Shown here: positions 15,971-29,725 of the stretch, piece by piece
How positions within the stretch are numbered: position 1 is the first letter of the stretch
How the letters are laid out: each line of letters opens with the position of its first letter
Assembly: GCA_017941345.1 (NCBI GenBank)
Contig: JAGAWQ010000007.1
Span: forward strand, 1 to 39,107
Reading direction: 5' to 3'
Length of the DNA stretch: 39,107 nt
Source: Prevotella sp.
GTDB taxonomy: Bacteria; Bacteroidota; Bacteroidia; Bacteroidales; Bacteroidaceae
Notes under the pieces: generated by a model
What the model was told of the DNA's origin: nothing
The model's database searches: none
The model's input: only the letters and a program-made list of their open reading frames with translations
Translations under genes and position numbers: made by a program

Positions 15971-16028
15971 AAATTCAGCCTACATTTGGTAGTTTGCACG
16001 ATTTGCAGTACCTTTGCAGGCTGAATTT
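15971..16028. repeat. Perfect 11-bp inverted repeat enclosing a promoter
   Basis: AAATTCAGCCT at 15971-15981 is repeated in inverted orientation (AGGCTGAATTT) at 16018-16028. The 36 bp between them contain the whole promoter of the next operon. A T-rich stretch follows the right arm, so the structure might also terminate the GH78 transcript. It might instead be an operator. The loop is rather long for a standard intrinsic terminator. Confidence 0.75.
15985..16016 (+). promoter_or_regulatory. Promoter of the four-gene head-group operon
   Basis: TTTG at 15985-15988, a 20-bp spacer and TACCTTTG at 16009-16016 match the consensus fully. The ATG of the first gene is 33 bp downstream. The hexamer TTTGCA occurs three times in and around it (15993, 16002, 16013). 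Confidence 0.85.
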
Positions 16029-16048: not shown

Positions 16049-17029
16049 ATGAACGAAGAGTTTAAGAAAACACTAAAGTCGTCGGAGACAGAAGACTGGT
16101 TAGACCTGCACTTTGTGCGTCCGTTCTGCTACTACTGGGCTCTGTTTTTTGCGCGCTTTGACATACATCCCAATACGGTGACTATCCTCTCGATGTTCAT
16201 CGGAGCAGGCAGTGCCTTCTTCTTCGCCTGTGCCAGCTACTACTATTGTGGTATCGTTGGCCTGTTGCTGAACATCGTGGCTATCCTGCTGTTGTGTCTG
16301 GCTGATATCTTCGACTGCACCGACGGACAGCTGGCTCGCATGACGGGCAAGAAGAGTCGTCTGGGACGTATCCTCGACGGAGCAGCTGGCTTCACGTGGT
16401 TCGTCCCCATCTACCACGCGATGGTCTATCGTTTCTACCTGCACCACGACCTGGAGTTCCAATGGCTGGGCATCAGCGACACACCAGAGAACGTGCTCAT
16501 TGCGACCTTCGTGGCTTATGCGTTGGGCGTTATCTCAGGCTTCACGGGTATTGCCGGCCAGCAACGTCTGGCCGACTACTATATCCAGGTACACCTCTTC
16601 TTCCTGAAGGGCGAGAAGGGCGCTGAGCTCGACAACTCGAAGCGCCAGCAGGAGATTTACGACCAGATGGACGCCTCGACCCCTTGGTATGAGCGCTACT
16701 TCCAGAAGTCATACATCGGTTATACCCAGAAGCAGGAGGCCGCTACTCCGCAGTTTCAGCGTCTGATGGCCCGTCTGCGTGAGAAGTACGGTGCTGCTGA
16801 CCAGATACCCCAAGCTGTTCGCGACGAGTTCCGTCGCTACTCGCTGCCCGTCATCAAGTGGAATGGTCTGCTGACCTTCAATTTCCGCTCTGCCTGGCTC
16901 TTCCTGTTCTGTCTGCTCGACGTGCCTGTGCTGTACTTCGTTTGGGAGATTGTGGGCATGGGACTGCTCTACCTGTATGTGAATCGTCGTCATGAAAACT
17001 TCTGCCGTAAGATGGCCGACAAACTGTAA
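16049..17029 (+). CDS. CDP-alcohol phosphatidyltransferase family protein with a variant active site
   Basis: This 326-residue integral membrane protein belongs to the family that moves a phospho-alcohol from a CDP carrier to an acceptor hydroxyl, or the reverse. The signature DxxDGxxAR is present (Asp89, Asp92), with the following Gly and Asp110 in GRILD. The last Asp of the canonical Gx3Dx3D, proposed as the catalytic base, is replaced by Gly114 (LDGAAGF). The N-terminal region WLDLHFVRPFCYYWALFFARF precedes HPNTVTILSM, normal for the family. Several hydrophobic helices follow. It heads an operon with a flippase-like protein, a PLP enzyme and a cytidylyltransferase. That context suggests it attaches an amino-alcohol phosphate. 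The acceptor (ceramide, diacylglycerol or glycan) is unknown. Confidence 0.85.
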   Translation: MNEEFKKTLKSSETEDWLDLHFVRPFCYYWALFFARFDIHPNTVTILSMFIGAGSAFFFACASYYYCGIVGLLLNIVAILLLCLADIFDCTDGQLARMTGKKSRLGRILDGAAGFTWFVPIYHAMVYRFYLHHDLEFQWLGISDTPENVLIATFVAYALGVISGFTGIAGQQRLADYYIQVHLFFLKGEKGAELDNSKRQQEIYDQMDASTPWYERYFQKSYIGYTQKQEAATPQFQRLMARLREKYGAADQIPQAVRDEFRRYSLPVIKWNGLLTFNFRSAWLFLFCLLDVPVLYFVWEIVGMGLLYLYVNRRHENFCRKMADKL

Positions 17030-17032
17030 CTT

Positions 17033-18076
17033 ATGAAGTGGACGAAGCAACGCCTGAATAATCTATTCTTCTTCCTGGGCTGTGCCGCTGTGGTGGTGAT
17101 GCTGCTGACGTTTGATGTCAGCTTCATCGAGCTATGGGAGCACATCTGCCATGCTGGCTACTGGCTCATTCCCATCATCGGAATCTGGGTGGTGGTCTAT
17201 GCGCTCAACGCGTTGGCGTGGAAGGCGATGATAGAAGGTAACATCGGGCGCAAGGCCCCTATCAGCTTCTGGCGTCTGTTTCAGCTCACCATCACAGGCT
17301 ATGCCCTGAACTACGCCACACCCGTTGGCGGACTAGGTGGTGAGCCCTACCGCATCATGGAGCTGTCGAAGGACATCGACAAGGAGCATGCTACATCAAG
17401 CGTCATCCTCTATGCTATGATGCACTTCTTCGCCCATTTCTGGTTCTGGTTCCTCAGCATCTTCATCTATCTGGCGCTGGCCGCTGCAGGCGACCTGCCT
17501 ATCACACCCGTCATAGGCACTACGTTAGGTATCATCGTGGTGTTCTGCCTGTTCTTCTTCTACCTCTTCTCACGAGGCTACAAGAACGGACTGGTGAAGT
17601 ATGTGCTGGGCGTGGTGAGTCGGATACCAGGACTGAAGCGCTGGACGCTACGCCTCTGGGCGCGTCACCATGAGGCCATCGACAACATCGACTGCCAGAT
17701 AGCAGCTCTCTACCAGCAAGACACGAAGGCTTTCTACAAGAGTCTGGTGCTGGAGTATTTCTCGCGTGTAGTACAGAGCGCTGAAGTGCTGTTCATGTTG
17801 CTGCTCTTCGGTATCGACAACGGAGGCGGACTGGCAGGAATATCCATCACTTTCCTGCACAGCATCCTGATTGTCTCGTTCACGACGCTGTTTGCCAATC
17901 TGATAGGATTTCTGCCCATGCAGTTGGGTGTGCAGGAGGGAGGTTTCGTGCTGTCCATCGCTGCATTAGGTCTGTCTGCAGCATTGGGCATCTTCGTCAG
18001 TATCATCTGCCGTGTGCGCGAGATTATCTGGATTGCAATTGGCATGCTTCTGATGAAAGTGAAAAGTGAAAAGTGA
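17033..18076 (+). CDS. Flippase-like / LPG-synthase transmembrane-domain protein (AglD/UPF0104 family)
   Basis: The 347-residue polytopic membrane protein begins 3 bp after the previous stop. It has about eight hydrophobic segments and the family's conserved pieces YALNYATPVGGLGGEPYRI, where the Pro-Gly-Gly-Glu-Pro region is diagnostic, and LIGFLPMQLGVQEGGFV near the C-terminus. Relatives include the membrane half of lysyl-phosphatidylglycerol synthase (which carries the flippase) and archaeal AglD. In this operon it most plausibly translocates the lipid or lipid-linked product across the inner membrane. Its 3' end, including the stop codon, lies in an array of AAGTGAA 7-mers (18057-18091), so the last few residues (VKSEK) may be a late addition. 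Confidence 0.85.
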   Translation: MKWTKQRLNNLFFFLGCAAVVVMLLTFDVSFIELWEHICHAGYWLIPIIGIWVVVYALNALAWKAMIEGNIGRKAPISFWRLFQLTITGYALNYATPVGGLGGEPYRIMELSKDIDKEHATSSVILYAMMHFFAHFWFWFLSIFIYLALAAAGDLPITPVIGTTLGIIVVFCLFFFYLFSRGYKNGLVKYVLGVVSRIPGLKRWTLRLWARHHEAIDNIDCQIAALYQQDTKAFYKSLVLEYFSRVVQSAEVLFMLLLFGIDNGGGLAGISITFLHSILIVSFTTLFANLIGFLPMQLGVQEGGFVLSIAALGLSAALGIFVSIICRVREIIWIAIGMLLMKVKSEK

Positions 18077-18091
18077 AAAATTAAAAGATAA
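18057..18091. repeat. Array of 7-bp units (AAGTGAA) across a gene end
   Basis: AAGTGAA occurs three times in perfect tandem (18057-18077), followed by decayed units AAATTAA and AAGATAA. The third unit supplies the TGA stop of the flippase-like gene. It reaches to within 5 bp of the next start. Confidence 0.8.
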
Positions 18092-18096
18092 AGATT

Positions 18097-19125
18097 ATGA
18101 ACTATCTCGACAGAAACGAATTTAATTTTGAGCCCAGCCAGAAAGTGGTGGAGGCCATCAAGAATTTCGACCCCAAGACGCTGTGCTTCTACACCCGCAT
18201 CTACGACCAGGGCAAGAAGAGCGTCATCTCCGTCCGCCTGAGCGAAATCTACGGTGTTCCTGAGAATCAGGTGCTGCTGACCTATGGCGGCGAAGACATG
18301 CTGAAGAATGCCATCCACTATTTCCTGATGGTTGGCGACAACAAGAAGATACTGATTCCTGAGTTCTCCTGGTGGTACTACAACCGTGTAGCCTCTGAGT
18401 GTGGCGGCACGTTCGAGATGTATCCCCTGCACGAACAGGAAGACACCTTCGCCTACGATATCGACGAGGTCATTGAGTACACCAACCGCGTTCATCCGCG
18501 TATGCTGTTGCTCGCTTCGCCCAACAACCCCACAGGTAACGGCTTGACCCCTGAGGAGATTGGTCGCATCATGGAGAACATTCCCTCAGACACGATGGTA
18601 CTCATCGACGAGGCCTATGCCAGCTTCATCTCGATGGACACAGCCTATATCGCTCCGCTGGTTGAGAAGTACAACAACCTGATCATCTCGCGCACGCTGT
18701 CTAAGTTCTACGGACTGCCCGGCCTTCGCGTAGGCTTCGGATTCATTGGCAAGGGTCACGACCAGTTCGAGAGCTACATCAACAAGTATCTGGGCTACAA
18801 CCGCTTCTCTGAGGCCGTAGCGCTGGCTGCTTTGGATAGCAACGAGCACTATCGTCAGGTGGCTGATGATATGCAGTGGGGACGCGACCTGTTCAAAAAG
18901 GAACTGGGTCATCTGCCTGGCTTCAAGGTTTACAAGTCGGTAGCCAATTTCATCCTCATCAAGTATCCTGTGGAAATCAAGGACAAGCTGATGGATGCCC
19001 TGAAGGTGCAGGACTACAAGATTAAGTTCATGACTGACAAGGGTTTGGAGTCGTGTCTGCGCATCACGCTGGGGCGCAAGGAACAGACGCAAACCGTTGT
19101 TGACACCATCAAGCGTTGCTTATGA
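18097..19125 (+). CDS. HisC/CobD-like class I/II PLP-dependent aminotransferase or decarboxylase
   Basis: This 342-residue fold-type I PLP enzyme shows ASPNNPTGN (substrate/PLP loop), VLIDEAYASF (Asp to the pyridine N), SRTLSKFYGLPGLRVGFG with the Schiff-base Lys at about 203, and a late CLRITLG with the carboxylate-binding Arg. The closest familiar relatives are histidinol-phosphate aminotransferase and threonine-phosphate decarboxylase (CobD), both of which handle small phosphorylated amines. No his or cobalamin genes are nearby. Instead it sits between a flippase-like gene and a LicC-like cytidylyltransferase, and overlaps the latter by ATGA. A role in making an amino-alcohol phosphate, by transamination or decarboxylation, is the best contextual guess. 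It should not be called hisC. Confidence 0.85.
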   Translation: MNYLDRNEFNFEPSQKVVEAIKNFDPKTLCFYTRIYDQGKKSVISVRLSEIYGVPENQVLLTYGGEDMLKNAIHYFLMVGDNKKILIPEFSWWYYNRVASECGGTFEMYPLHEQEDTFAYDIDEVIEYTNRVHPRMLLLASPNNPTGNGLTPEEIGRIMENIPSDTMVLIDEAYASFISMDTAYIAPLVEKYNNLIISRTLSKFYGLPGLRVGFGFIGKGHDQFESYINKYLGYNRFSEAVALAALDSNEHYRQVADDMQWGRDLFKKELGHLPGFKVYKSVANFILIKYPVEIKDKLMDALKVQDYKIKFMTDKGLESCLRITLGRKEQTQTVVDTIKRCL

Positions 19126-19898
19126 TTGGAGTTATCTTAGCTGCAGGCATGGCCAAGCGCCTACGTCCATTGACTGATACGAAGCCTAAGTGTCTGCTGG
19201 AGGTTGGCGGGCGCACGCTCCTTGAGCGCACCGTCCGTGCAATGCAGCAGGCTGGCATCACCGAGTTTGTAGTGGTGACGGGCTATCGTGGTGAGCAGAT
19301 ACGCGGTTTTCTGGAGACTAGTATTTCTAGTATTCCTAGTAGTAGTAGTAGTTCTACTAGTGATACTAGTACGACTAGCCCCCACTTTACTTTTCTGCAT
19401 AATAGCGATTACGAGCACAACAACAACATCTACTCGCTGTGGATGGCGGGTGAGGTGGTGCGCGGACGCGAGTTCTTGCTAATGGACAGCGATATCCTGT
19501 GCGACCCAGCTGCTGTGGTGGCTATCGCAAAGCAAGAGGAGTCGGCTCTGGCGCTGAACCGTCATGAGTGTGGCGAGGAGGAAATCAAGGTCATCGTGGA
19601 TGCCAACCAGCACATCACGGAGATCAACAAGACCTGCAACCCAAAGGATGCCATTGGCGAGTCGGTGGGTATCGAGAAAATGACTGCCGAATACAGCACA
19701 GCCCTCTATCGGGAGCTCGACCAGATGATAGTGAAGGAAGGCCTCATCGACATCTTCTACGAGCGTTGCTTCGAGCGACTGATTCCCCAGGGGCATACCT
19801 TCAAGGTGGTTGATACGACCCACTATTTCTCATACGAATTGGACACGCCAGAGGATTTCCAGCGTGCCCAAGAACTTATTCCTGCTGAGTTGCTTTAA
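19122..19898 (+). CDS. LicC-like sugar/amino-alcohol-phosphate nucleotidyltransferase
   Basis: The 258-residue cytoplasmic protein has the nucleotidyltransferase N-terminus LAAGMAKRLRPLTDTKPKCL with the signature GxxxRxxPxTxxxPK. It also has EHNNNIYSLWMA and a metal-binding MDSDILCD, both features of phosphocholine cytidylyltransferase (LicC) and the N-domain of PntC. CTP activation of a small phosphorylated or phosphono amine is therefore likely. The ATG at 19122 overlaps the PLP-enzyme stop; a TTG at 19116 is less likely. Between the GYRGEQIRGFLE region and FTFLHNSDYEHNN lies a 21-residue Ser/Thr-rich insert (residues 66-86) encoded by a 9-bp repeat array, in a surface-loop position. The terminator hairpin begins inside the coding 3' end. 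Confidence 0.85.
   Translation: MIGVILAAGMAKRLRPLTDTKPKCLLEVGGRTLLERTVRAMQQAGITEFVVVTGYRGEQIRGFLETSISSIPSSSSSSTSDTSTTSPHFTFLHNSDYEHNNNIYSLWMAGEVVRGREFLLMDSDILCDPAAVVAIAKQEESALALNRHECGEEEIKVIVDANQHITEINKTCNPKDAIGESVGIEKMTAEYSTALYRELDQMIVKEGLIDIFYERCFERLIPQGHTFKVVDTTHYFSYELDTPEDFQRAQELIPAELL
19317..19379 (+). repeat. In-frame 9-bp repeat array in the cytidylyltransferase gene
   Basis: Seven 9-bp units of the form ACTAGTATT/TCTAGTATT/CCTAGTAGT and variants encode seven tripeptides (TSI, SSI, PSS, SSS, STS, DTS, TTS). The flanking sequence is non-repetitive and conserved in the family. This marks the array as an insertion or expansion that kept the frame. Confidence 0.85.
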
Positions 19899-19918
19899 CC
19901 CAGCAGGAATATTTTTTT
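19877..19918 (+). terminator. Intrinsic terminator of the head-group operon
   Basis: TATTCCTGCTG (19877-19887) pairs perfectly with CAGCAGGAATA (19901-19911) across a 13-nt loop and is followed by seven T residues. The left arm and loop include the last codons and stop of the cytidylyltransferase gene. The T-tract touches the stop codon of the convergent M13 peptidase gene. Confidence 0.9.
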
Positions 19919-21997: not shown

Positions 21998-22939
21998 ATG
22001 ATTACACCAAGTTTTAAAACTCCACTGAGCGGCATTATCCCACCGCTGGTAACCCCACTGAAAGATAACGAGACACTGGACATCGAGAGTCTGGAGCGAC
22101 TGATAGAGCACCTCATTGCGGGTGGCGTACACGGACTCTTCGTGCTGGGCACTACAGGCGAGGAGCAAAGTCTGTCGTACGATGTGCGTAAGCAGATGAT
22201 TCGCGAGTCGTGCCGCATCAATCGCGGACGGTTGCCCCTGCTGGCTTGCATCACCGACACCTCGATAGTGGAGAGCATCAAACTAGCCCGTGTGGCTGCC
22301 GACTGTGGCGCTGACGGAGTGGTCAGTGCTCCCCCCTACTACTTCGCTACGGGTCAGCCCGAGCTGGCTCAGTTCTACGAGGAGCTGGTGCCTCAGCTGC
22401 CGCTTCCCGTGTTCTTATATAATATGCCTTCGCACGTGAAGGTGAGCTTTGCTCCTGATACCGTTCGTCGCATTGCTCAGAACCCTCAGGTGGTGGGCTT
22501 CAAGGACTCCAGCGCCAATGCCGTCTATTTCCAGTCGGTCATGTATAAGATGCAGCATCGTCCTGACTTCGCCATGCTTGTCGGTCCTGAGGAGATTACG
22601 GGCGAGTGCGTACTGTTAGGTGGTGACGGCGGCATCAACGGCGGTGCCAACATGTTCCCTGAGCTCTACGTGGCGATGTACGATGCTGCCCAGGAGCGCA
22701 ACATCGATAAGATGCTGCCGTTGCAACAGCTCATCATGCAGATTTCGACCTCTATCTACACCGTAGGCAAGCATGGCAGCAGCTATCTGAAGGGCTTGAA
22801 GTGTGCCCTCTCCCTCTTAGGCATCATCAACGACGACTTCGTGGCCTCGCCGTTCTACAAGTTCGAGGCTCCCGAGCGTGAGAAAATCCGTCAGGCACTC
22901 GACGCACTACCCATCAAGAATGGAAAACTAAAGTTTTAA
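21998..22939 (+). CDS. NAL/DHDPS-superfamily aldolase (2-keto-3-deoxy acid lyase type)
   Basis: The 313-residue TIM-barrel class I aldolase has the family elements VTPLKDN, VLGTTGEEQSL (pyruvate carboxylate site), YNMPSHV (Tyr141) and VGFKDSS with the Schiff-base Lys169. The superfamily includes dihydrodipicolinate synthase, N-acetylneuraminate lyase and KDG aldolase. The two-gene pairing with an SSS symporter, away from lysine genes, argues for a catabolic lyase rather than DapA. Given the neighbouring GH143-like module, Kdo or Dha (3-deoxy-2-ulosonic acids of RG-II) are attractive substrates. Sialic acid is an alternative, but no sialidase of the GH33 type or epimerase is present. The substrate is not proven by sequence. 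Confidence 0.85.
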   Translation: MITPSFKTPLSGIIPPLVTPLKDNETLDIESLERLIEHLIAGGVHGLFVLGTTGEEQSLSYDVRKQMIRESCRINRGRLPLLACITDTSIVESIKLARVAADCGADGVVSAPPYYFATGQPELAQFYEELVPQLPLPVFLYNMPSHVKVSFAPDTVRRIAQNPQVVGFKDSSANAVYFQSVMYKMQHRPDFAMLVGPEEITGECVLLGGDGGINGGANMFPELYVAMYDAAQERNIDKMLPLQQLIMQISTSIYTVGKHGSSYLKGLKCALSLLGIINDDFVASPFYKFEAPEREKIRQALDALPIKNGKLKF

Positions 22940-22968
22940 ATGAAAGAAATCTTTCATTCCTTTCATTT
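22938..22968. repeat. Intercistronic hairpin built of CTTTCATT units
   Basis: AAATGAAAG (22938-22946) is complementary to CTTTCATTT (22960-22968), with another CTTTCATT at 22951-22958. It lies between the aldolase and symporter genes and starts in the aldolase stop codon. It could stabilise or attenuate the dicistronic mRNA. It may also be a decayed member of the short-repeat arrays seen elsewhere in the window. Confidence 0.5.
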
Positions 22969-22982
22969 AACAAAAATATATT

Positions 22983-24500
22983 ATGCATCTAGTTGATTTC
23001 ATCATCTTCATCGTCTTCACGCTAGGCGTCGTGGTGTTTGGCTGTTCGTTCTTCAAGAAGGGCTCCAGCGCTGACGAGTTCACCTCAGCAGGTCACTCCA
23101 TTCCCGGCTGGGTGGTAGGCATGTCGATTTTTGCCACCTACGTGTCGAGTATTTCCTACATCGGTTATCCGGGCAAGGCATTTGCTGCCGACTGGAATGC
23201 CTTTGTATTCTCGCTCAGCATCCCTATTGCGAGCTATTTCGCCGCCAAGTATTTCGTGCCGTTCTACCGGCATAGCGGGAGCGTTTCTGCCTATACGTTC
23301 TTGGAGGAGAAGTTTGGCGCGTGGGCGCGTCTGTATGCCTCAGCGTGCTACCTGCTGACACAGATTGCGCGCATGGGCAGCATCCTCTATCTGCTGGCCG
23401 TTCCGATGTATATCCTCATGGGTTGGGACATGCATACCGTCATCATCCTCACGTCCATTGGCATCATCGTCTATTCGATGATGGGAGGCCTGAAGGCGGT
23501 CATCTGGGCAGATGCCATACAGGGTATTATATTAATAGGTGGAGCGCTGCTGTGCTTGGCCATCCTGATGTTCTCGATGCCCGAGGGCCCGATGCAGACG
23601 TTCGAACTGGCGGCTAACTCGCCCATGGGCAACAAGTTCTCGCTGGGTGCATTTACGTCTGATTTGACCACCTCGACCTTCTGGGTATGCCTCATCTACG
23701 GCATCTTCATCAATCTGCAGAACTACGGCATCGACCAGAACTACGTGCAACGCTATCATGCGGCCAAGACCGACAAGGATGCGAAGTTCTCGGCACTCTT
23801 CGGAGGTTACCTGTTTATCCCCGTCAGCGCCCTGTTCTTCCTCATTGGCTCCGCCTTGTACTCGTACTATCAGGCGGGCGTAGCCCCATTGCCTGCTGAG
23901 ATTCAGGCCAAGCCCGACTACGTCTTTCCTTATTTTATTGTGAATGGCCTGCCCGTAGGCTTGCGCGGCCTGTTGATTGCGAGCATCTTTGCGGCGGGCA
24001 TGTCGACCGTTTCGACCAGCGTGACCTCTGCGGCTACGATTATCTTGACCGACTATGTGCGCCCGTTCTTCCTCAAGGCGCGCAACGTGGCTGACCACTT
24101 GCGACACCACGACCCGCAAGACCATCACCGACATCAGCGGCTGGAGCTGGCCATCGTGCGCCTCTCGAGCTTTGGCGTGGGCATTCTGGGTGCCTGTGTA
24201 GCTATTGCTATGCTCTCCGTAGAAAGCATCATCGACGCGTGGTGGACACTCTCGAGCATCTTCTCAGGCGGCATGCTGGGCTTGTTCCTGCTGGGTTGCA
24301 TCCCACAACGCATCAGCCGCCTCGCAGCCTTCTTAGGGTGCCTCTGCGGCATCTTCGTGATTGGCTGGATATCGTTGGCCGAGATGTGGCAGCTGCCAGG
24401 CATCCACCTGCATCCCTATCTGGCCATCGTGCTGGGCACCTCAGTCATCTTCCTCGTGGGATTTCTGGCCACATTCCTCGTAAAAGGCAGGCTTTCTTAA
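22983..24500 (+). CDS. Sodium:solute symporter (SSS family)
   Basis: This 505-residue inner-membrane transporter has about 13 hydrophobic segments. It begins with a helix containing DFIIFIVFTLGVVVFG, then the SSS pattern SSADEFTSAGHSIPGWVVGMSIFATYVSSISYIGYPGKAF. MMGGLKAVIWADAIQG is a classic family motif, and AAGMSTVSTSVTSAATI carries the Na2-site Ser/Thr residues. The gene follows the aldolase by 43 bp in the same direction, so it probably imports the aldolase's substrate. SSS members carry sugars, sialic acid, amino acids or carboxylates, so specificity cannot be read from sequence. It is full length; no terminator is obvious after it. Confidence 0.92.
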   Translation: MHLVDFIIFIVFTLGVVVFGCSFFKKGSSADEFTSAGHSIPGWVVGMSIFATYVSSISYIGYPGKAFAADWNAFVFSLSIPIASYFAAKYFVPFYRHSGSVSAYTFLEEKFGAWARLYASACYLLTQIARMGSILYLLAVPMYILMGWDMHTVIILTSIGIIVYSMMGGLKAVIWADAIQGIILIGGALLCLAILMFSMPEGPMQTFELAANSPMGNKFSLGAFTSDLTTSTFWVCLIYGIFINLQNYGIDQNYVQRYHAAKTDKDAKFSALFGGYLFIPVSALFFLIGSALYSYYQAGVAPLPAEIQAKPDYVFPYFIVNGLPVGLRGLLIASIFAAGMSTVSTSVTSAATIILTDYVRPFFLKARNVADHLRHHDPQDHHRHQRLELAIVRLSSFGVGILGACVAIAMLSVESIIDAWWTLSSIFSGGMLGLFLLGCIPQRISRLAAFLGCLCGIFVIGWISLAEMWQLPGIHLHPYLAIVLGTSVIFLVGFLATFLVKGRLS

Positions 24501-24560
24501 CAAAAAATCATGATTAAGGTCATGAAATTCAAGTTTTTTTTGCATTTTTTTCGACTTTTA

Positions 24561-24592
24561 TTTGGAACATATTCAGAAAAACCCTATATTTG
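24561..24592 (+). promoter_or_regulatory. Promoter of the beta-barrel outer-membrane protein
   Basis: TTTG at 24561-24564, a 20-bp spacer and TATATTTG at 24585-24592 match the consensus exactly, with an AT-rich upstream region (24530-24560). The transcript would have a leader of about 38 nt. Confidence 0.85.
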
Positions 24593-24637
24593 CATCGAAT
24601 TAGACAAAATCATAGTATTAACTAAATTCAAAAGAAA

Positions 24638-25216
24638 ATGAAAAAAATGATGATGATTGCCGCCATGATGCTGATGAGCATGGGCGCATTTGCACAGAAT
24701 GCAATTGGTCAGTTAACCATTAAGCCAATGGTAGGTATGACATTGACGACTATCACTGGTGGTAATGCTGACATGAAGGTAGGTCTGGCAGCTGGTGCTG
24801 AGGTTGAGTACGGTATCGCTGACAAGTTTGGCTTGACTGGAGGTCTGATTTACTCTATGCAGGGAGCCAAGTATACTCCTAGTGGCTCTTCAGTTAAGGT
24901 TACAACCAACCTTGATTACATCAACATTCCTATTCTGGCCAACTACTATGTATATCCTGGTTTGGCTATCAAGGCAGGTCTGCAGCCTGGTTTCAATGTT
25001 CGTGGCAAGACAAAGACCGATGCTGGCAACTCTACTCAGGAGGTTGATTCCAATGCCAAGACCGTTGACTTCTCAATTCCCTTTGGCATTTCTTACCAGT
25101 TCTCAGACTTCGTTATCGATGCTCGTTACAACCTTGGTCTGACTAACACATCCGATGGTGGCAGCAGCAAGAACAGCGTATTCATGTTCTCTGTAGGCTA
25201 CAAGTTCGAGCTCTAA
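24638..25216 (+). CDS. Small outer-membrane beta-barrel protein (PorT/OmpX-like fold)
   Basis: The 192-residue protein has a signal peptide (Met-rich, ending GAFAQN) followed by alternating hydrophobic and polar strands punctuated by Gly and aromatic residues. Examples are AAGAEVEYGIADKFGL, GLIYSMQGAKY, YINIPILANYYVYPG and VIDARYNLGLT. It ends with the strand FMFSVGYKFEL, the usual BAM-recognised terminal strand. It matches the broad 'outer membrane protein beta-barrel' family of about eight strands. It is monocistronic, with a strong promoter and strong terminator, as expected for an abundant envelope protein. Function is unknown. Confidence 0.85.
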   Translation: MKKMMMIAAMMLMSMGAFAQNAIGQLTIKPMVGMTLTTITGGNADMKVGLAAGAEVEYGIADKFGLTGGLIYSMQGAKYTPSGSSVKVTTNLDYINIPILANYYVYPGLAIKAGLQPGFNVRGKTKTDAGNSTQEVDSNAKTVDFSIPFGISYQFSDFVIDARYNLGLTNTSDGGSSKNSVFMFSVGYKFEL

Positions 25217-25239
25217 TCAATCTCAAAATTAGAAAAACA

Positions 25240-25277
25240 CCCCCGCTGTCATCGCTGTCAGCGGGGTTTGTTTTTTT
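25240..25277 (+). terminator. Intrinsic terminator after the beta-barrel gene
   Basis: CCCCGCTG (25241-25248) pairs with CAGCGGGG (25259-25266) around a 10-nt loop, followed by TTTGTTTTTTT. The whole 26-bp hairpin recurs in inverted orientation, with one mismatch, at 27819-27844. Confidence 0.92.
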
Positions 25278-25320
25278 AGCGTAATAGTAGCACATAGAGG
25301 TAAGATAACCTTACTAATTT

Positions 25321-25352
25321 CTTGCTCATTCCGAAAAAATGTCTTACCTTTG
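25321..25352 (+). promoter_or_regulatory. Subtilase promoter
   Basis: TACCTTTG at 25345-25352 is a perfect -7. CTTG at 25321-25324 is a one-off -33 with the correct 20-bp spacer. The leader before the ATG at 25397 is about 38 nt. Confidence 0.75.
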
Positions 25353-25396
25353 CCTGCGATTTACATTGTAGAAACAACAAACAAAACAAACTGAGT

Positions 25397-27793
25397 ATGA
25401 GGAAAAATTTACTTCGTAGCTGTCTGTCGCTGTCGCTGTTGCTGGCAGGTCAGACGGTATTGGCACAAAGTGCATTCTCGCCAACGGTGAACGGACTGAG
25501 AAGCAATTATCAGACACGACGCGCAGCAGCAGCTGATGCCGCTCAGGAGCGCGGGTCGTTCATCGTGACGTGTAGCGTGGATGCCAGTGCTGCTGACATT
25601 GCCAACAAGATGATTGAGATGGGCGCCCAGATTGGTGCGCTGATGGGCAACCAGCTGATTGTCGACCTGCCTATGTCGAAGCTGGAGGATGCGGCTGCCA
25701 TAGAGGGTGTGCTGCTGATTGACCTGCCTGGAGTAAGCACCGAGAAGACCGACATGACGCGTAAGGCATCACACGTAGATGAGGTGCATCAGGGCAAGGC
25801 CGAAGGTCTGAAAGACCTGCCCCAGGCCTATACGGGCAAGGGTGTCATCATCGGACTGATTGACGGGGGCTACGACTTCACCCACCCGATTTTCAAGGAC
25901 AAGGACGGCAAGTTGCGCATCAAAGGTGTCTATATGGCTTCTGAAGAACAGCTGCGTGCGGATGGTGAGTCGCTGGACAACATCACCGTCACCGATGACA
26001 AGGGCCAGACGACACAGGTATCGCTGCCAGGTGCATTCCTCACCAATCCTGACGTGATTCTGGACACGCTGAAACTGAAGGACATCTATGGCAGTCATGG
26101 TACCCACTGCGCTTCGATTGCCGCAGGCACTATCATGACCGATACGAAGGGTGTGGCCGAAGGTGCGTTAGGCGGTATGGCTCCTGATGCAGAACTGCTT
26201 CTGACAGACCCCAGTCCCACGAATGGACAAGTTAATGCCTCAGGAATGTCAACCAATGCCCTCAGGGATATCAACAGAATGAAGGCCCTGTGGCTCATGC
26301 AGAAGTATGCCAAGGAGCAGAACAAGCCTCTGGTAGTCAGCTGGAGCCAGAACAACCACGACGGATTCCACAACGGCACCAGCTCGCAGTCGCGCTTTAT
26401 TGGCCATTACTGCAAGGCTGGCAACATCATGGCACTCTGCTCGAGCAATGAGGGTGGCGACTCGATGTTCGTCGAGCGAAAAATCAATAAGGGAAAGACC
26501 ATCTACATCAACACGTTCCCAGAAAACAATAACGCCACTACCTTAGGCTTCATCCAGACTGACAAGAACATCACAATCACCCTGAACGTGATAGACGCCC
26601 AGCGCAACACGGCATATAGGTGCAACCTGCCTCTTTCGGCCAACGGGTTGAACAGTTATGAGCAAACATTCCAATATAAGGTAGAATGGGAAGGAAACCA
26701 AAAGGACTGGTACTATTACGATAAATATTATAGCAATCATGGCCCGATGGGTGCTCTGCTCGATTACATCAATGAAGGTGAAATATCGCTCAGCATCAAC
26801 AAAGGCAGCTTGCTGGACGTCAATGGTGCGCAGGTTCCGTTCGTGCGCTACGAGCTGAAAGTAAACGGCCTTCGTACGGAGAAAGACCCCAACAGCGCTC
26901 AAGGCTATCGCTACACCTTCGAGCTGGAAGTGGGATCGCCTGAGGAAGACGTGACCATGTATGCCTGGGGCGACTACTACTCGCTCTATGCCACCTCGAT
27001 GGAAAAGGAGGATATCTATATGCCAGGCTCTAGCGACCACTCGATGGGCGACATGAACACCAGCGGCGAACCTGTAAGCATTGGTGCCTACGTGGCTAAC
27101 AACAAAAAACCTTACAAAGGTGTGCTGGAGGAGGACAAAGACGAGAAGGTAGGCCGCTACGCCAGCTTCAGCAGCTATGGCTACGACCTCAGCAAAGAGC
27201 GTCGCAAGTATCCTGACGTGGTGACTCCAGGCGTTTCCGTCTTGGCTGCCTACAACAGCTTCGGCAACGAACTTGGCTCATGGATTACCAAGTCGTATTC
27301 TAAACAGTTCAAGGGCCAGACAGAGCCTCGCACTTACGCTTACGACTTCATGTCGGGCACGTCGATGGCCACTCCCGCCGCCGCCGGTGTCATAGCCCTC
27401 TGGGTACAAGCTGCCAACGACAAGGGCAAGACGCTGACCAACAAGGACATCAAGGACATCATTGCCCACAGCAGCGAGACGGACGACTTCACCAAAGCTG
27501 AGCCGCTGCGCTACGGTTCAGGCAAGATGAATGCCTACAAGGGTCTGCTCTATGTGCTGGATATGGCAACAACCGTACCTGACCTGCCCACCGAGCACAT
27601 CAGCGCTACGCTGAACGGTCGCACGCTGCACATCAGCGGCGATCCTGACATTCAGGTGACCGTCTACAACCTCTCAGGTGTGAAGGTGCTCGACACACAG
27701 GCCCAAGGCGGCATCGTAGAACTGCCCATGCTGCCCGCCGGCGTCTATGCCGTCAAGATTGGCACCAAGGGCTCGACGCTCATCAGGCTGTAA
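25397..27793 (+). CDS. Secreted S8 subtilisin-like serine protease with a T9SS sorting domain
   Basis: The 798-residue protein starts at ATG 25397 (an upstream in-frame extension crosses the promoter). It has a Sec signal ending VLAQS, then an inhibitor-like prodomain to about residue 120. The S8 catalytic domain contains Asp156 in GLIDGGYD, His234 in GSHGTHCAS and Ser656 in SGTSMATPA. A large insert separates the His and Ser motifs, containing a beta-rich domain of about 250 residues. The C-terminal 60 residues (IQVTVYNLSGVKVLD, LPAGVYAVKI and a terminal basic strand) match the type A sorting domain of the Bacteroidetes type IX secretion system. It is therefore probably exported to the cell surface or outside. 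It stands alone between two mirror-image terminators. Confidence 0.93.
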   Translation: MRKNLLRSCLSLSLLLAGQTVLAQSAFSPTVNGLRSNYQTRRAAAADAAQERGSFIVTCSVDASAADIANKMIEMGAQIGALMGNQLIVDLPMSKLEDAAAIEGVLLIDLPGVSTEKTDMTRKASHVDEVHQGKAEGLKDLPQAYTGKGVIIGLIDGGYDFTHPIFKDKDGKLRIKGVYMASEEQLRADGESLDNITVTDDKGQTTQVSLPGAFLTNPDVILDTLKLKDIYGSHGTHCASIAAGTIMTDTKGVAEGALGGMAPDAELLLTDPSPTNGQVNASGMSTNALRDINRMKALWLMQKYAKEQNKPLVVSWSQNNHDGFHNGTSSQSRFIGHYCKAGNIMALCSSNEGGDSMFVERKINKGKTIYINTFPENNNATTLGFIQTDKNITITLNVIDAQRNTAYRCNLPLSANGLNSYEQTFQYKVEWEGNQKDWYYYDKYYSNHGPMGALLDYINEGEISLSINKGSLLDVNGAQVPFVRYELKVNGLRTEKDPNSAQGYRYTFELEVGSPEEDVTMYAWGDYYSLYATSMEKEDIYMPGSSDHSMGDMNTSGEPVSIGAYVANNKKPYKGVLEEDKDEKVGRYASFSSYGYDLSKERRKYPDVVTPGVSVLAAYNSFGNELGSWITKSYSKQFKGQTEPRTYAYDFMSGTSMATPAAAGVIALWVQAANDKGKTLTNKDIKDIIAHSSETDDFTKAEPLRYGSGKMNAYKGLLYVLDMATTVPDLPTEHISATLNGRTLHISGDPDIQVTVYNLSGVKVLDTQAQGGIVELPMLPAGVYAVKIGTKGSTLIRL

Positions 27794-27816
27794 GATTCAA
27801 CCCGATATCGACAATT

Positions 27817-27850
27817 CACCCCGCTGACAGTGATGACAGCGGGGTGTTTT
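27817..27850 (+). terminator. Intrinsic terminator after the subtilase gene
   Basis: CACCCCGCTG (27817-27826) pairs with CAGCGGGGTG (27837-27846) around a 10-nt loop, followed by TTTTG. It is a near-exact inverted copy of the terminator at 25241-25266. Confidence 0.88.
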
Positions 27851-27901
27851 GTTCGTCTTCAAAGATAGAGACGAAACGACTAAAACAAAACAATAACGAC
27901 A

Positions 27902-29725
27902 ATGAAAAAGAACTATCCGAAGATTGGTATTCGTCCGACGATTGATGGCCGCCAAGGTGGCATCCGCGAAGGACTGGAAGAGAAGACAATGGCGCTGGCC
28001 AATGCAGTGAAGAACCTGATAGAGAGCACGTTGAAGAACGGCGACGGAAGTCCTGTGGAGTGCGTCATCTCAGACACGACGATTGGCCGCGTGGGCGAGA
28101 GTGCCGCTTGCGCTGAGAAGTTTGAGCGCGAGGGTGTGGGCTCGACCATCACCGTCACGTCGTGCTGGTGCTATGGCTCAGAGACGATGGATATGAATCC
28201 GCAGTATCCGAAGGCCGTCTGGGGCTTCAACGGAACGGAGCGTCCAGGAGCCGTCTATCTGGCTGCCGTACTGGCTGCTCACGCCCAGAAGGGTCTGCCT
28301 GCCTACGGCATCTATGGTCACGACGTGCAGGACTTGGCTGACAACACCATTCCTGAGGACGTTGCAGAGAAGATTCTTCGCTTTGCCCGTGCTGCTCAGG
28401 CAGTCGCCACGATGCGCGGCAAGAGCTATCTGTCGTTGGGCAACACCTGTATGGGTATCGCTGGCTCCATCGTGAATGCTGACTTCCTGCAGAACTATTT
28501 GGGCATGCGTACGGAGTATGTGTCTCTGGTTGAGATACTCCGTCGCGTCGACTTTGGCATCTACGACAAAGACGAGTTTGCCAAAGCGATGGCGTGGGTG
28601 GAGAAATGCTGCAAGCCCAACGAGGGTCACGACTATAACGAGGACCGTCCGCTGTTCCCAGGTGTACCCATGACCACCTTCAACGGCAAGGGCAAGGGTA
28701 AGAACCGTCAGGAGAAGGACGAGGACTGGGAGTTCACTGTGAAGACGATGATGATTATCCGCGACCTGATGCAAGGCTCAGAAAAGCTGTTGGAGATGGG
28801 CTACAAGGAAGAGGCCATCGGACATAACGCTATCGCAGCTGGTGTGCAAGGTCAACGTCAGTGGACCGACTACAAGCCCAACTTCGACTTCCCTGAGTCG
28901 ATGATGTGTACGTCGTTCGACTGGAACGGACCGCGCGAGGCTTACACGCTGGCTACCGAGAACGACTTCCTGAACGGTATGTCGATGCTGTTCGGTCACT
29001 TGCTGACCAACAAGGGTGTGATGTTCTCAGACATCCGTACCTACTGGAGCCCAGAAGCCGTAAAACGCGTAACAGGCACCGTGCTGAGCGGGTCTGCCGC
29101 TCAGGGTTTCATCCACCTCATCAACAGCGGCGCCACCACCCTCGACGCTACGGGCGCAATGAGCGACAAGGACGGTCAGCCTACCATCAAGAACTTCTGG
29201 GAGATGAAGCAGGAAGACGTGGAGGCCTGTCTGAAGGCAACCTCGTGGATGCCTGCTGACCGTGACTACTTCCGCGGCGGTGGTTACTCGTCACACTTCG
29301 TGACCCGTGGTGGTATGCCCATGACGATGCTGCGTCTGAACCTCGTTGCTGGCTTAGGTCCTGTACTGCAACTCGCTGAAGGCTGGACCGTTGAGCTCGA
29401 CCCCAAGACGCACGACATTCTGGACAAGCGTACCGACCCCACATGGCCTACCACATGGTTTGCCCCACGTCTCGACCCCACGAAAGACGCCTTCAAGGAT
29501 GTGTACTCAGTCATGAACAACTGGGGAGCCAATCACGGAGCTATCTGCTACGGACACGTGGGTGCCGACCTCATTACGCTCTGTGCTATGCTGCGCATCC
29601 CCGTCTGCATGCACAACATTGCCGATAAGGACATCTTCCGTCCCTCATGCTGGAATGCCTTCGGTATGGACAAGGAGGGTGCCGACTATCGTGCATGCGC
29701 TAACTTCGGACCGATCTATAAGTAA
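27902..29725 (+). CDS. fucI: L-fucose isomerase
   Basis: This 607-residue cytoplasmic enzyme interconverts L-fucose and L-fuculose, and in the family also D-arabinose/D-ribulose and, in some members, L-galactose/L-tagatose. The start ATG 27902 gives [22 protein letters not shown], the typical FucI N-terminus. It carries [22 protein letters not shown] and [12 protein letters not shown], and the Mn-site region with Glu and Asp residues around [18 protein letters not shown]. The C-terminal [17 protein letters not shown]-like region follows. Length is normal for the hexameric enzyme (about 590). It heads a run with an esterase and GH95 (a family that includes alpha-L-fucosidases and alpha-L-galactosidases), a logical pairing. 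fucK and fucA are not in the window. Confidence 0.97.

What the first reader, a model, noticed from the sequence alone, without database searches (positions are those of the whole stretch)
16049..19898. Four-gene operon that looks like a complete CDP-head-group pathway of unknown product
Seen: CDP-alcohol phosphotransferase, flippase-like membrane protein, HisC/CobD-like PLP enzyme and LicC-like cytidylyltransferase, tightly spaced, with one promoter and one terminator. Known: LicC and PntC activate phosphocholine or aminoethylphosphonate with CTP, CDP-alcohol enzymes transfer the head group, CobD decarboxylates phosphothreonine, and LPG-type TM proteins flip lipids. Inference: the PLP enzyme makes a small amino-alcohol phosphate (ethanolamine-, aminopropanol- or serinol-phosphate-like), which is CTP-activated, attached to a lipid such as dihydroceramide or diacylglycerol, or to a glycan, and then flipped. 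This would be a route to an amino-phospholipid independent of phosphatidylserine decarboxylase.
Basis: partly seen in the sequence, partly recalled or inferred. Interest (0 to 1): 0.72.

Follow-up and report, generated by a model that had tools for sequence, protein, structure and literature searches.

The report
Operon making a CDP-amino-alcohol lipid head group
A four-gene operon in a Prevotella-like bacterium probably builds a small amino-alcohol phosphate, activates it with CTP and attaches it to a membrane lipid, using a transferase and membrane protein related to those of the inositol-lipid pathway; the exact head group is still unknown.

Summary
Four genes (CDP-alcohol phosphotransferase CAP, LPG_synthase_TM protein FLP, HisC-like PLP enzyme, LicC/PntC-like cytidylyltransferase NTP) lie at 16049-19898 with a Bacteroidota-type promoter and a strong terminator. 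The set is co-conserved though gene order varies: in 60 same-genus genomes all 21 PLP carriers have NTP and 17 have CAP. Farther relatives keep PLP-NTP beside a window-type CAP, a canonical CAP, LicD or a CDP-glycerol-type transferase, which points to a CDP-alcohol product.

NTP keeps both acids that face the substrate amine in PntC. CAP is nested inside CAPs of the published 'alternative inositol-lipid cluster' of Prevotella, and FLP plus (in some loci) an 855-aa outer-membrane-type protein are shared with it: a head-group swap. One relative has serine palmitoyltransferase, the PLP cassette and the inositol cluster in one locus.

The parts
15985..16016 (+). Bacteroidota-type promoter (TTTG ... 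TACCTTTG)
   Evidence: pattern search, 8 in window against 0.45 expected; consensus recalled, function inferred
16049..17029 (+). CAP: CDP-alcohol phosphotransferase of the inositol-lipid CAP family; DCTDGQLARMTGKKSRLGRILDGAAG, fourth motif Asp replaced by Gly
   Evidence: PF01066; alignments and tree
17033..18076 (+). FLP: LPG_synthase_TM / HpnL-like membrane protein, candidate flippase
   Evidence: PF03706; 45-52% identical to proteins beside CAP in L053, L054 and L056, MIPS seen in the last two
18097..19125 (+). PLP: class I/II PLP enzyme, proposed amino-alcohol-phosphate synthase (transaminase or decarboxylase)
   Evidence: PF00155; below HisC and CobD cut-offs; tree; clade fingerprint
19122..19898 (+). 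NTP: LicC/PntC-like cytidylyltransferase with amine-site acids D122 and E214
19877..19918 (+). intrinsic terminator: hairpin with 11-pair outer stem plus U7
   Evidence: fold -19 kcal/mol, z -7.49

Best explanation
The operon is a CDP-head-group (Kennedy-type) pathway for an amino-alcohol membrane lipid. Step 1 (inferred): the PLP enzyme makes a small amino-alcohol phosphate. I favour serinol phosphate by transamination of dihydroxyacetone phosphate (about 40%) over ethanolamine phosphate by decarboxylation of phosphoserine (about 35%); aminopropanol phosphate or another compound takes the rest. Step 2 (sequence-supported): the LicC/PntC-like enzyme couples it to CTP, giving CDP-X. Step 3 (family-supported): CAP, a relative of the CAP proposed to use CDP-inositol in Prevotella, moves phospho-X onto a lipid hydroxyl, probably dihydroceramide or diacylglycerol. 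Step 4 (inferred): FLP moves the product across the inner membrane. In evolutionary terms it is a head-group swap on inositol-lipid machinery: PLP+NTP stand in place of inositol-phosphate synthase and its cytidylyltransferase, while CAP, FLP and in some loci an 855-aa outer-membrane-type protein are kept.
For: In 60 same-genus genomes (own included), PLP-NTP co-occur in 21 of 21 PLP carriers (Fisher 3e-14) and PLP-CAP in 17 of 21 (2.5e-10); 14 of the 17 have PLP and CAP in the same fetched locus. The 4 carriers without window-type CAP have LicD in the PLP locus, 4 of 4 (L027, L030, L036, L039), against 1 of 17 with CAP (L032). In 42 named-collection loci of the PLP clade (L073-L114), 37 have NTP and 37 have a CDP-alcohol-type transferase: 19 window-type CAP, 7 canonical CAP, 6 LicD, 5 PF04464-like; 5 show none. 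In 16 further phylum genomes, 12 have PLP with NTP and 15 PLP with a CAP. NTP D122 and E214 align with PntC E104 and E196, which face the amine (PMC6697681 passages); in 14 rows E214 is invariant and D122 is Glu only in the fusion row; 6 proposed inositol-type enzymes have Thr and a gap there. CAP nests inside inositol-cluster CAPs with 100/99 and 100/98 support. FLP and the 855-aa protein are shared. L041 holds serine palmitoyltransferase (NF047600 680.6 bits, cut-off 640), two unassigned proteins, PLP-CAP-NTP, and then the inositol cluster with MIPS.
Against: No substrate was tested and no structure could be predicted. NTP's highest NCBIfam scores are sugar-phosphate nucleotidyltransferases, and an inositol-1-phosphate cytidylyltransferase model scores 57.8 bits, all far below cut-off. 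PLP-NTP also pairs with LicD and PF04464-like transferases, which by what is known of those families act on glycans or polymers, so CDP-X need not serve a lipid. Serine palmitoyltransferase was found in L041 only of all fetched loci. CAP has Gly for the fourth motif Asp in 10 of 10 window-type rows, with Phe or Tyr next, where 7 of 10 inositol-family rows have Asp or Glu; activity is therefore less certain. Psd is found in most carriers, so ethanolamine would be partly redundant. The serinol preference rests on ancestry and redundancy arguments only.
Confidence: 0.58

Rival explanations
1. Head group is ethanolamine: PLP decarboxylates phosphoserine, giving CDP-ethanolamine and then PE or ceramide phosphoethanolamine by a bacterial Kennedy route.
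For: Phosphoserine decarboxylation is reported for Cj1436 of C. jejuni (passages in PMC12409886 and PMC11800397). A ~606-aa fusion of a LicC-like enzyme with a CobD-like PLP domain exists in the same genus, beside LicD in 8 of 11 fetched loci, suggesting that CobD-type chemistry plus LicC is used there. B. thetaiotaomicron makes PE-dihydroceramide (PMC9246714 passages).
Against: PLP lies apart from CobD and the fusion in the tree. Psd is found in 96 of 100 relatives (not in the window's own incomplete genome). The operon is accessory (PLP in 21 of 60 same-genus genomes).
Confidence: 0.33
2. CDP-X decorates a surface glycan or capsule, and the CAP/FLP version acts on a lipid-linked glycan rather than a bulk membrane lipid.
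For: LicD or PF04464-like transferases stand in place of CAP in 11 of 42 named loci, and 7 of those 11 loci show blastp matches to glycosyltransferase references.
Against: None of the 9 other window ORFs scanned with Pfam is a glycosyltransferase (other window ORFs were not scanned); CAP descends from inositol-lipid CAPs.
Confidence: 0.2
3. Phosphonate route: PLP makes 2-aminoethylphosphonate and NTP is a PntC.
For: PntC is NTP's best solved match.
Against: PEP mutase (TIGR02320) passes cut-off in 4 of 37 carrier genomes (G050, G055, G102, G111), the incomplete G000 being one of the 33 without.
Confidence: 0.03
4. PLP is the cell's histidine (HisC) or cobamide (CobD) enzyme that merely sits in this operon.
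For: Best NCBIfam score is HisC, 207.8 bits.
Against: Below the HisC cut-off of 276.55. The same genome has L046 grouping with Bacteroidota rows and E. coli HisC, and L045 with CobD on a long branch; the PLP clade of 23 rows has support 97/97. PLP tracks NTP 21 of 21.
Confidence: 0.03

Closest known systems
Alternative (B. vulgatus-like) inositol-lipid cluster of Bacteroides/Prevotella (Heaver et al. 2022, PMC9246714, passages read)
   Same: CAP family (window CAP nested inside it), LPG-synthase-type membrane protein, in some loci an 855-aa SusC-like protein, and the cytidylyltransferase-plus-CAP logic
   Different: MIPS and HAD hydrolase are missing; the cytidylyltransferase is LicC/PntC-like; a HisC-like PLP enzyme stands where MIPS would be. 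The match of L053-L063 to that cluster is by gene content; B. vulgatus sequences were not compared
Lic-1 and PntC pathways
   Same: LicC/PntC-like cytidylyltransferase with amine-site acids; LicD is the partner in several relatives
   Different: X is proposed to come from a PLP enzyme, not from choline kinase or PEP mutase; CAP+FLP instead of LicD in the window
C. jejuni Cj1437/Cj1436 (serinol-phosphate and ethanolamine-phosphate formation)
   Same: PLP enzymes reported to make the same kind of small amino-alcohol phosphates
   Different: Used there to amidate capsular glucuronic acid, not as CDP head groups; I had no Cj sequences to compare
LicC-CobD fusion beside LicD in the same genus and order (L072, L153-L162)
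   Same: Cytidylyltransferase plus PLP enzyme, usually beside LicD
   Different: PLP part is CobD-like (1lc5 6.6e-31), a different lineage from the window PLP; octopine-dehydrogenase-like gene in 7 of 11 loci

Membership tests
Alternative inositol-lipid cluster | MIPS (inositol-phosphate synthase) in the cluster | tested here: not met
   tblastn with L041 MIPS (E <= 1e-20) gave no window hit
Alternative inositol-lipid cluster | CAP of the cluster's family | tested here: met
   nested with 100/99 and 100/98 support; the deeper forks are weaker (91/57, 83/43)
Alternative inositol-lipid cluster | its own NTP transferase type | tested here: not met
   window NTP matches PntC at the amine-site positions, 6 cluster NTPs do not
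Alternative inositol-lipid cluster | HAD hydrolase | tested here: not met
   no window hit in tblastn with L041 HAD at E <= 1e-20
LicC/PntC cytidylyltransferase | nucleotidyltransferase motif and amine-site acids | tested here: met
   AAG..RL..PK motif, D122, E214; the LicC row is offset by one residue at D122, so that equivalence goes through PntC and the paper
LicC/PntC cytidylyltransferase | CTP plus phosphocholine or AEP activity | not testable with these tools
   needs an assay
HisC | TIGR01141 curated score | tested here: not met
   207.8 against 276.55 bits
CobD | TIGR01140 curated score | tested here: not met
   111.2 against 290.55 bits; separate branch in the tree
CDP-alcohol phosphotransferase | DxxDGxxARx8GxxxDxxxD motif | tested here: not met
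   fourth Asp is Gly in 10 of 10 window-type rows; PF01066 score still over cut-off
LPG_synthase_TM flippases (MprF, HpnL) | family score and transport activity | tested here: inconclusive
   PF03706 met; HpnL model 72.6 of 195.65 and MprF 16.2 of 600 not met; transport untested

The most novel reading that the evidence does not exclude
An undescribed bacterial Kennedy-type pathway, spread over several phyla, in which a HisC-related transaminase makes serinol phosphate from dihydroxyacetone phosphate, a LicC-like enzyme makes CDP-serinol, and interchangeable transferases put phosphoserinol on sphingolipids, glycerolipids or glycans; in Prevotella the lipid branch was rebuilt from inositol-lipid parts.
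Probability: 0.27. Interest if true: 0.82.

Novelty: new variant of a known kind. Interest (0 to 1): 0.62.

Why it matters
It would add a new amino head group, or a new way to make one, to the lipids of gut and rumen Bacteroidota. It suggests that head groups can be swapped by exchanging the pair of genes that make the CDP-alcohol while transferase and membrane protein are kept. It gives a ready test set: one PLP-NTP pair with four kinds of transferase, and one locus (L041) with sphingolipid, X and inositol genes side by side. In the open-licence papers searched I saw no paper on such an operon; most subscription papers are not in that library.

Tried and rejected
Phosphonate head group: disfavoured by PEP mutase counts. 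Replacement for PS decarboxylase: disfavoured; Psd was missing in 4 of 100 relatives (G000 at 60% completeness, G023, G056, G089) and in G105, G107 and G109 of 14 further carriers (one Aminicenantes and two Krumholzibacteriia MAGs of unknown completeness), which I did not follow up. CobD identity of PLP: rejected by scores and tree. Sphingolipid linkage across many loci: tblastn for serine palmitoyltransferase over all loci then fetched hit L041 only. Cys in the DCxDG motif of PLP-linked CAPs (17 of 17 rows) against Ser in inositol-family CAPs (10 of 10) looked like a specificity mark, but a second PLP-linked CAP type (CAPb, 4 of 4) has Ser, so no claim is made. sigma-70 promoter scan: nothing before CAP. 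tRNA and Rfam scans of the window: no hits. Viral contigs: 6 weak hits of 24-29%, not followed up. Direct repeats in the NTP region: none reported. Literature: searches gave zero papers; some searches listed papers, none on such an operon by title and abstract start. No whole paper was read; passages only of PMC9246714, PMC6697681, PMC12409886, PMC11800397, PMC12096443, PMC11982090 and PMC10434233.

Limits of counts: in the named set I used 42 of 80 loci (L073-L114); the other 38 (L115-L152, 26-32% identity) were left out because they fall outside the clade in the tree, L115 and L120 being its nearest outside rows. Several loci end at contig ends. PF04464 was scanned with Pfam only in L105; the other four are phmmer matches to that protein. 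Of the 12 loci I call inositol-type (L041, L053-L063), MIPS was seen in 7 (L041, L054, L055, L056, L059, L062, L063); L053 shows only CAP and FLP although its tree row is labelled MIPS. The listing was cut, so counts of the fusion would be lower bounds; fusion and PLP together were verified at locus level in G019, G034, G035 and G037. Tree roots are midpoints, for drawing only, and the CAP tree carries a long-branch warning for the CAPb rows.
Full report
1. Observation. The four genes are present as described, tightly spaced, with an ATGA overlap between PLP and NTP. Pfam supports each domain above its curated cut-off. A Bacteroidota-type promoter precedes CAP (15985-16016) and a strong terminator follows NTP.

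2. Conservation. Among 60 same-genus genomes (the window's included), PLP orthologues (58% identity or more) occur in 21, NTP orthologues (54% or more) in 23 and window-type CAP in 18. All 21 PLP carriers have NTP and 17 have CAP (Fisher 3e-14 and 2.5e-10). The two NTP-only genomes are 78% and 62% complete. Of the 17, 14 have PLP and CAP in the same fetched locus; in G001, G040 and G049 they are apart. The four PLP carriers without CAP have LicD in the PLP locus, 4 of 4, against 1 of 17 with CAP. Gene order varies: CAP-FLP-PLP-NTP as in the window, PLP-CAP-FLP-NTP, NTP-PLP-CAP-FLP and split arrangements.

3. Beyond the genus. A named-genome search with the PLP alignment gave 80 loci. Of the 42 that belong to the clade (L073-L114: Prevotellaceae, Salinivirgaceae, Ignavibacteria, Desulfobacterales, Aminicenantes, Krumholzibacteriia, Acidobacteria and others), 37 have NTP in the locus and 37 have a transferase that by its family uses CDP-alcohols: 19 window-type CAP, 7 canonical CAP, 6 LicD, 5 PF04464-like; 5 show none. 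Prevotella sp. oral taxon 299 has PLP-NTP-LicD. In a phylum sample of 395 genomes, 17 had the PLP clade at E <= 1e-70, G000 included; of the 16 others, 12 have PLP with NTP and 15 PLP with a CAP in the fetched stretch. The common factor of these transferases is a CDP-alcohol donor (known for the families, not tested here). This is the main argument that PLP+NTP make CDP-X. A LicD-type enzyme, mf1, has been shown to accept CDP-ethanolamine (PMC11982090 abstract and passages).

4. Cytidylyltransferase. In PntC, Glu104 and Glu196 are positioned to interact with the amine of AEP, and LicC has Asp105 and Asp192 there (PMC6697681, passages). Window Asp122 and Glu214 align with PntC Glu104 and Glu196 (my alignment sets the LicC row off by one at the first site, so that equivalence rests on the paper). 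Glu214 is invariant in 14 aligned rows; Asp122 is Glu only in the fusion row. Six NTPs of inositol-type loci have Thr and a gap. This favours an amine-bearing substrate. Against it, NTP's highest NCBIfam scores are sugar-phosphate nucleotidyltransferase models, all far below cut-off.

5. PLP enzyme. It scores below the cut-offs of both HisC and CobD. In a tree of 79 rows the clade of 23 (97/97) lies with the HisC rows, across a 96/93 branch from CobD and the LicC-CobD fusion. The same genome's L046 groups with E. coli HisC and Bacteroidota rows, and L045 with CobD on a long branch. The clade has its own fingerprint: DRNE, WWYY, SPNNPTGN, and Lys where HisC and CobD have an Arg. Transamination of DHAP, as reported for Cj1437, or decarboxylation of phosphoserine, as for Cj1436, would each give a suitable product. 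I lean to serinol phosphate because HisC's own substrate, imidazole-acetol phosphate, is a substituted DHAP (recalled), because Psd already supplies PE in most carriers, and because the genus also has a LicC-CobD fusion, usually beside LicD, that is a better candidate for CDP-ethanolamine. This is inference.

6. Transferase and membrane protein. Window CAP is nested within CAPs of inositol-type loci. By gene content these correspond to the alternative cluster that Heaver et al. propose to make CDP-inositol and then PI (PMC9246714, passages). FLP is 45-52% identical to its counterparts in three such loci (MIPS seen in two of the three), and the 855-aa SusC-like protein of L023, L024 and L066 is 56-65% identical to those in six inositol-type loci. 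All 10 window-type CAPs have Gly for the fourth motif Asp and Phe or Tyr next; 7 of 10 inositol-family rows have Asp or Glu at that next position. The 16 canonical and CAPb-type CAPs of other PLP cassettes in the tree keep the Asp, except none (15 of 15 rows). The catalytic consequence is unknown.

7. One relative (L041, genome G079 of the same order) has, in one direction, serine palmitoyltransferase (over the NF047600 cut-off), two unassigned proteins (no NCBIfam match; one also without Pfam match; GNAT is my guess), PLP-canonical CAP-NTP, a LysE-like transporter, a second NTP, a TetR-type regulator, a weak RimK-like match, CAP, FLP, HAD and MIPS. This is the best single piece of evidence that X, like inositol, is a lipid head group. 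It is also the only fetched locus with serine palmitoyltransferase. The LysE-like transporter sits beside the cassette in five further loci (L163, L166, L168, L172, L174), a possible counterpart of FLP.

8. Psd (PF02666) is found in 96 of 100 relatives, 11 of 14 further PLP carriers and 16 of 16 phylum carriers, so in most carriers the operon is additional to the PS route; the window's own 60%-complete genome has no match. PEP mutase is over cut-off in 4 of 37 carriers.

9. Verdict. A real, co-conserved CDP-head-group module, new to me in its combination (HisC-like PLP enzyme, LicC-like enzyme, inositol-family CAP and FLP), but built from known kinds of parts; the product is predicted, not shown.

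Noticed in passing
window 19328-19383: NTP carries a Ser/Thr-rich low-complexity insert from AGT/CTAGT-rich DNA; L021 has a different low-complexity insert at the same place.
   Followed up: partly
L072:6836-8653 and L153-L162: A ~606-aa fusion of a LicC-like cytidylyltransferase with a CobD-like PLP domain, beside LicD in 8 of 11 loci and an octopine-dehydrogenase-like gene in 7 of 11.
   Followed up: partly
L041, L055-L058, L060-L062: Inositol-type loci contain a protein related to a ~270-aa weak RimK-like match of L041 beside CAP or NTP; I did not see it named in the passages read of the inositol-lipid paper.
   Followed up: no
L109, L165, L167: Some cassettes have two different CAPs flanking PLP-NTP.
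   Followed up: partly
genomes G105, G107, G109 (L110, L112, L114): No PS decarboxylase match in one Aminicenantes and two Krumholzibacteriia MAGs that carry the PLP clade; completeness unknown.
   Followed up: no
window 21998-29725: DHDPS-family gene followed by a sodium:solute symporter gene, then a subtilase gene and an L-fucose isomerase gene.
   Followed up: no
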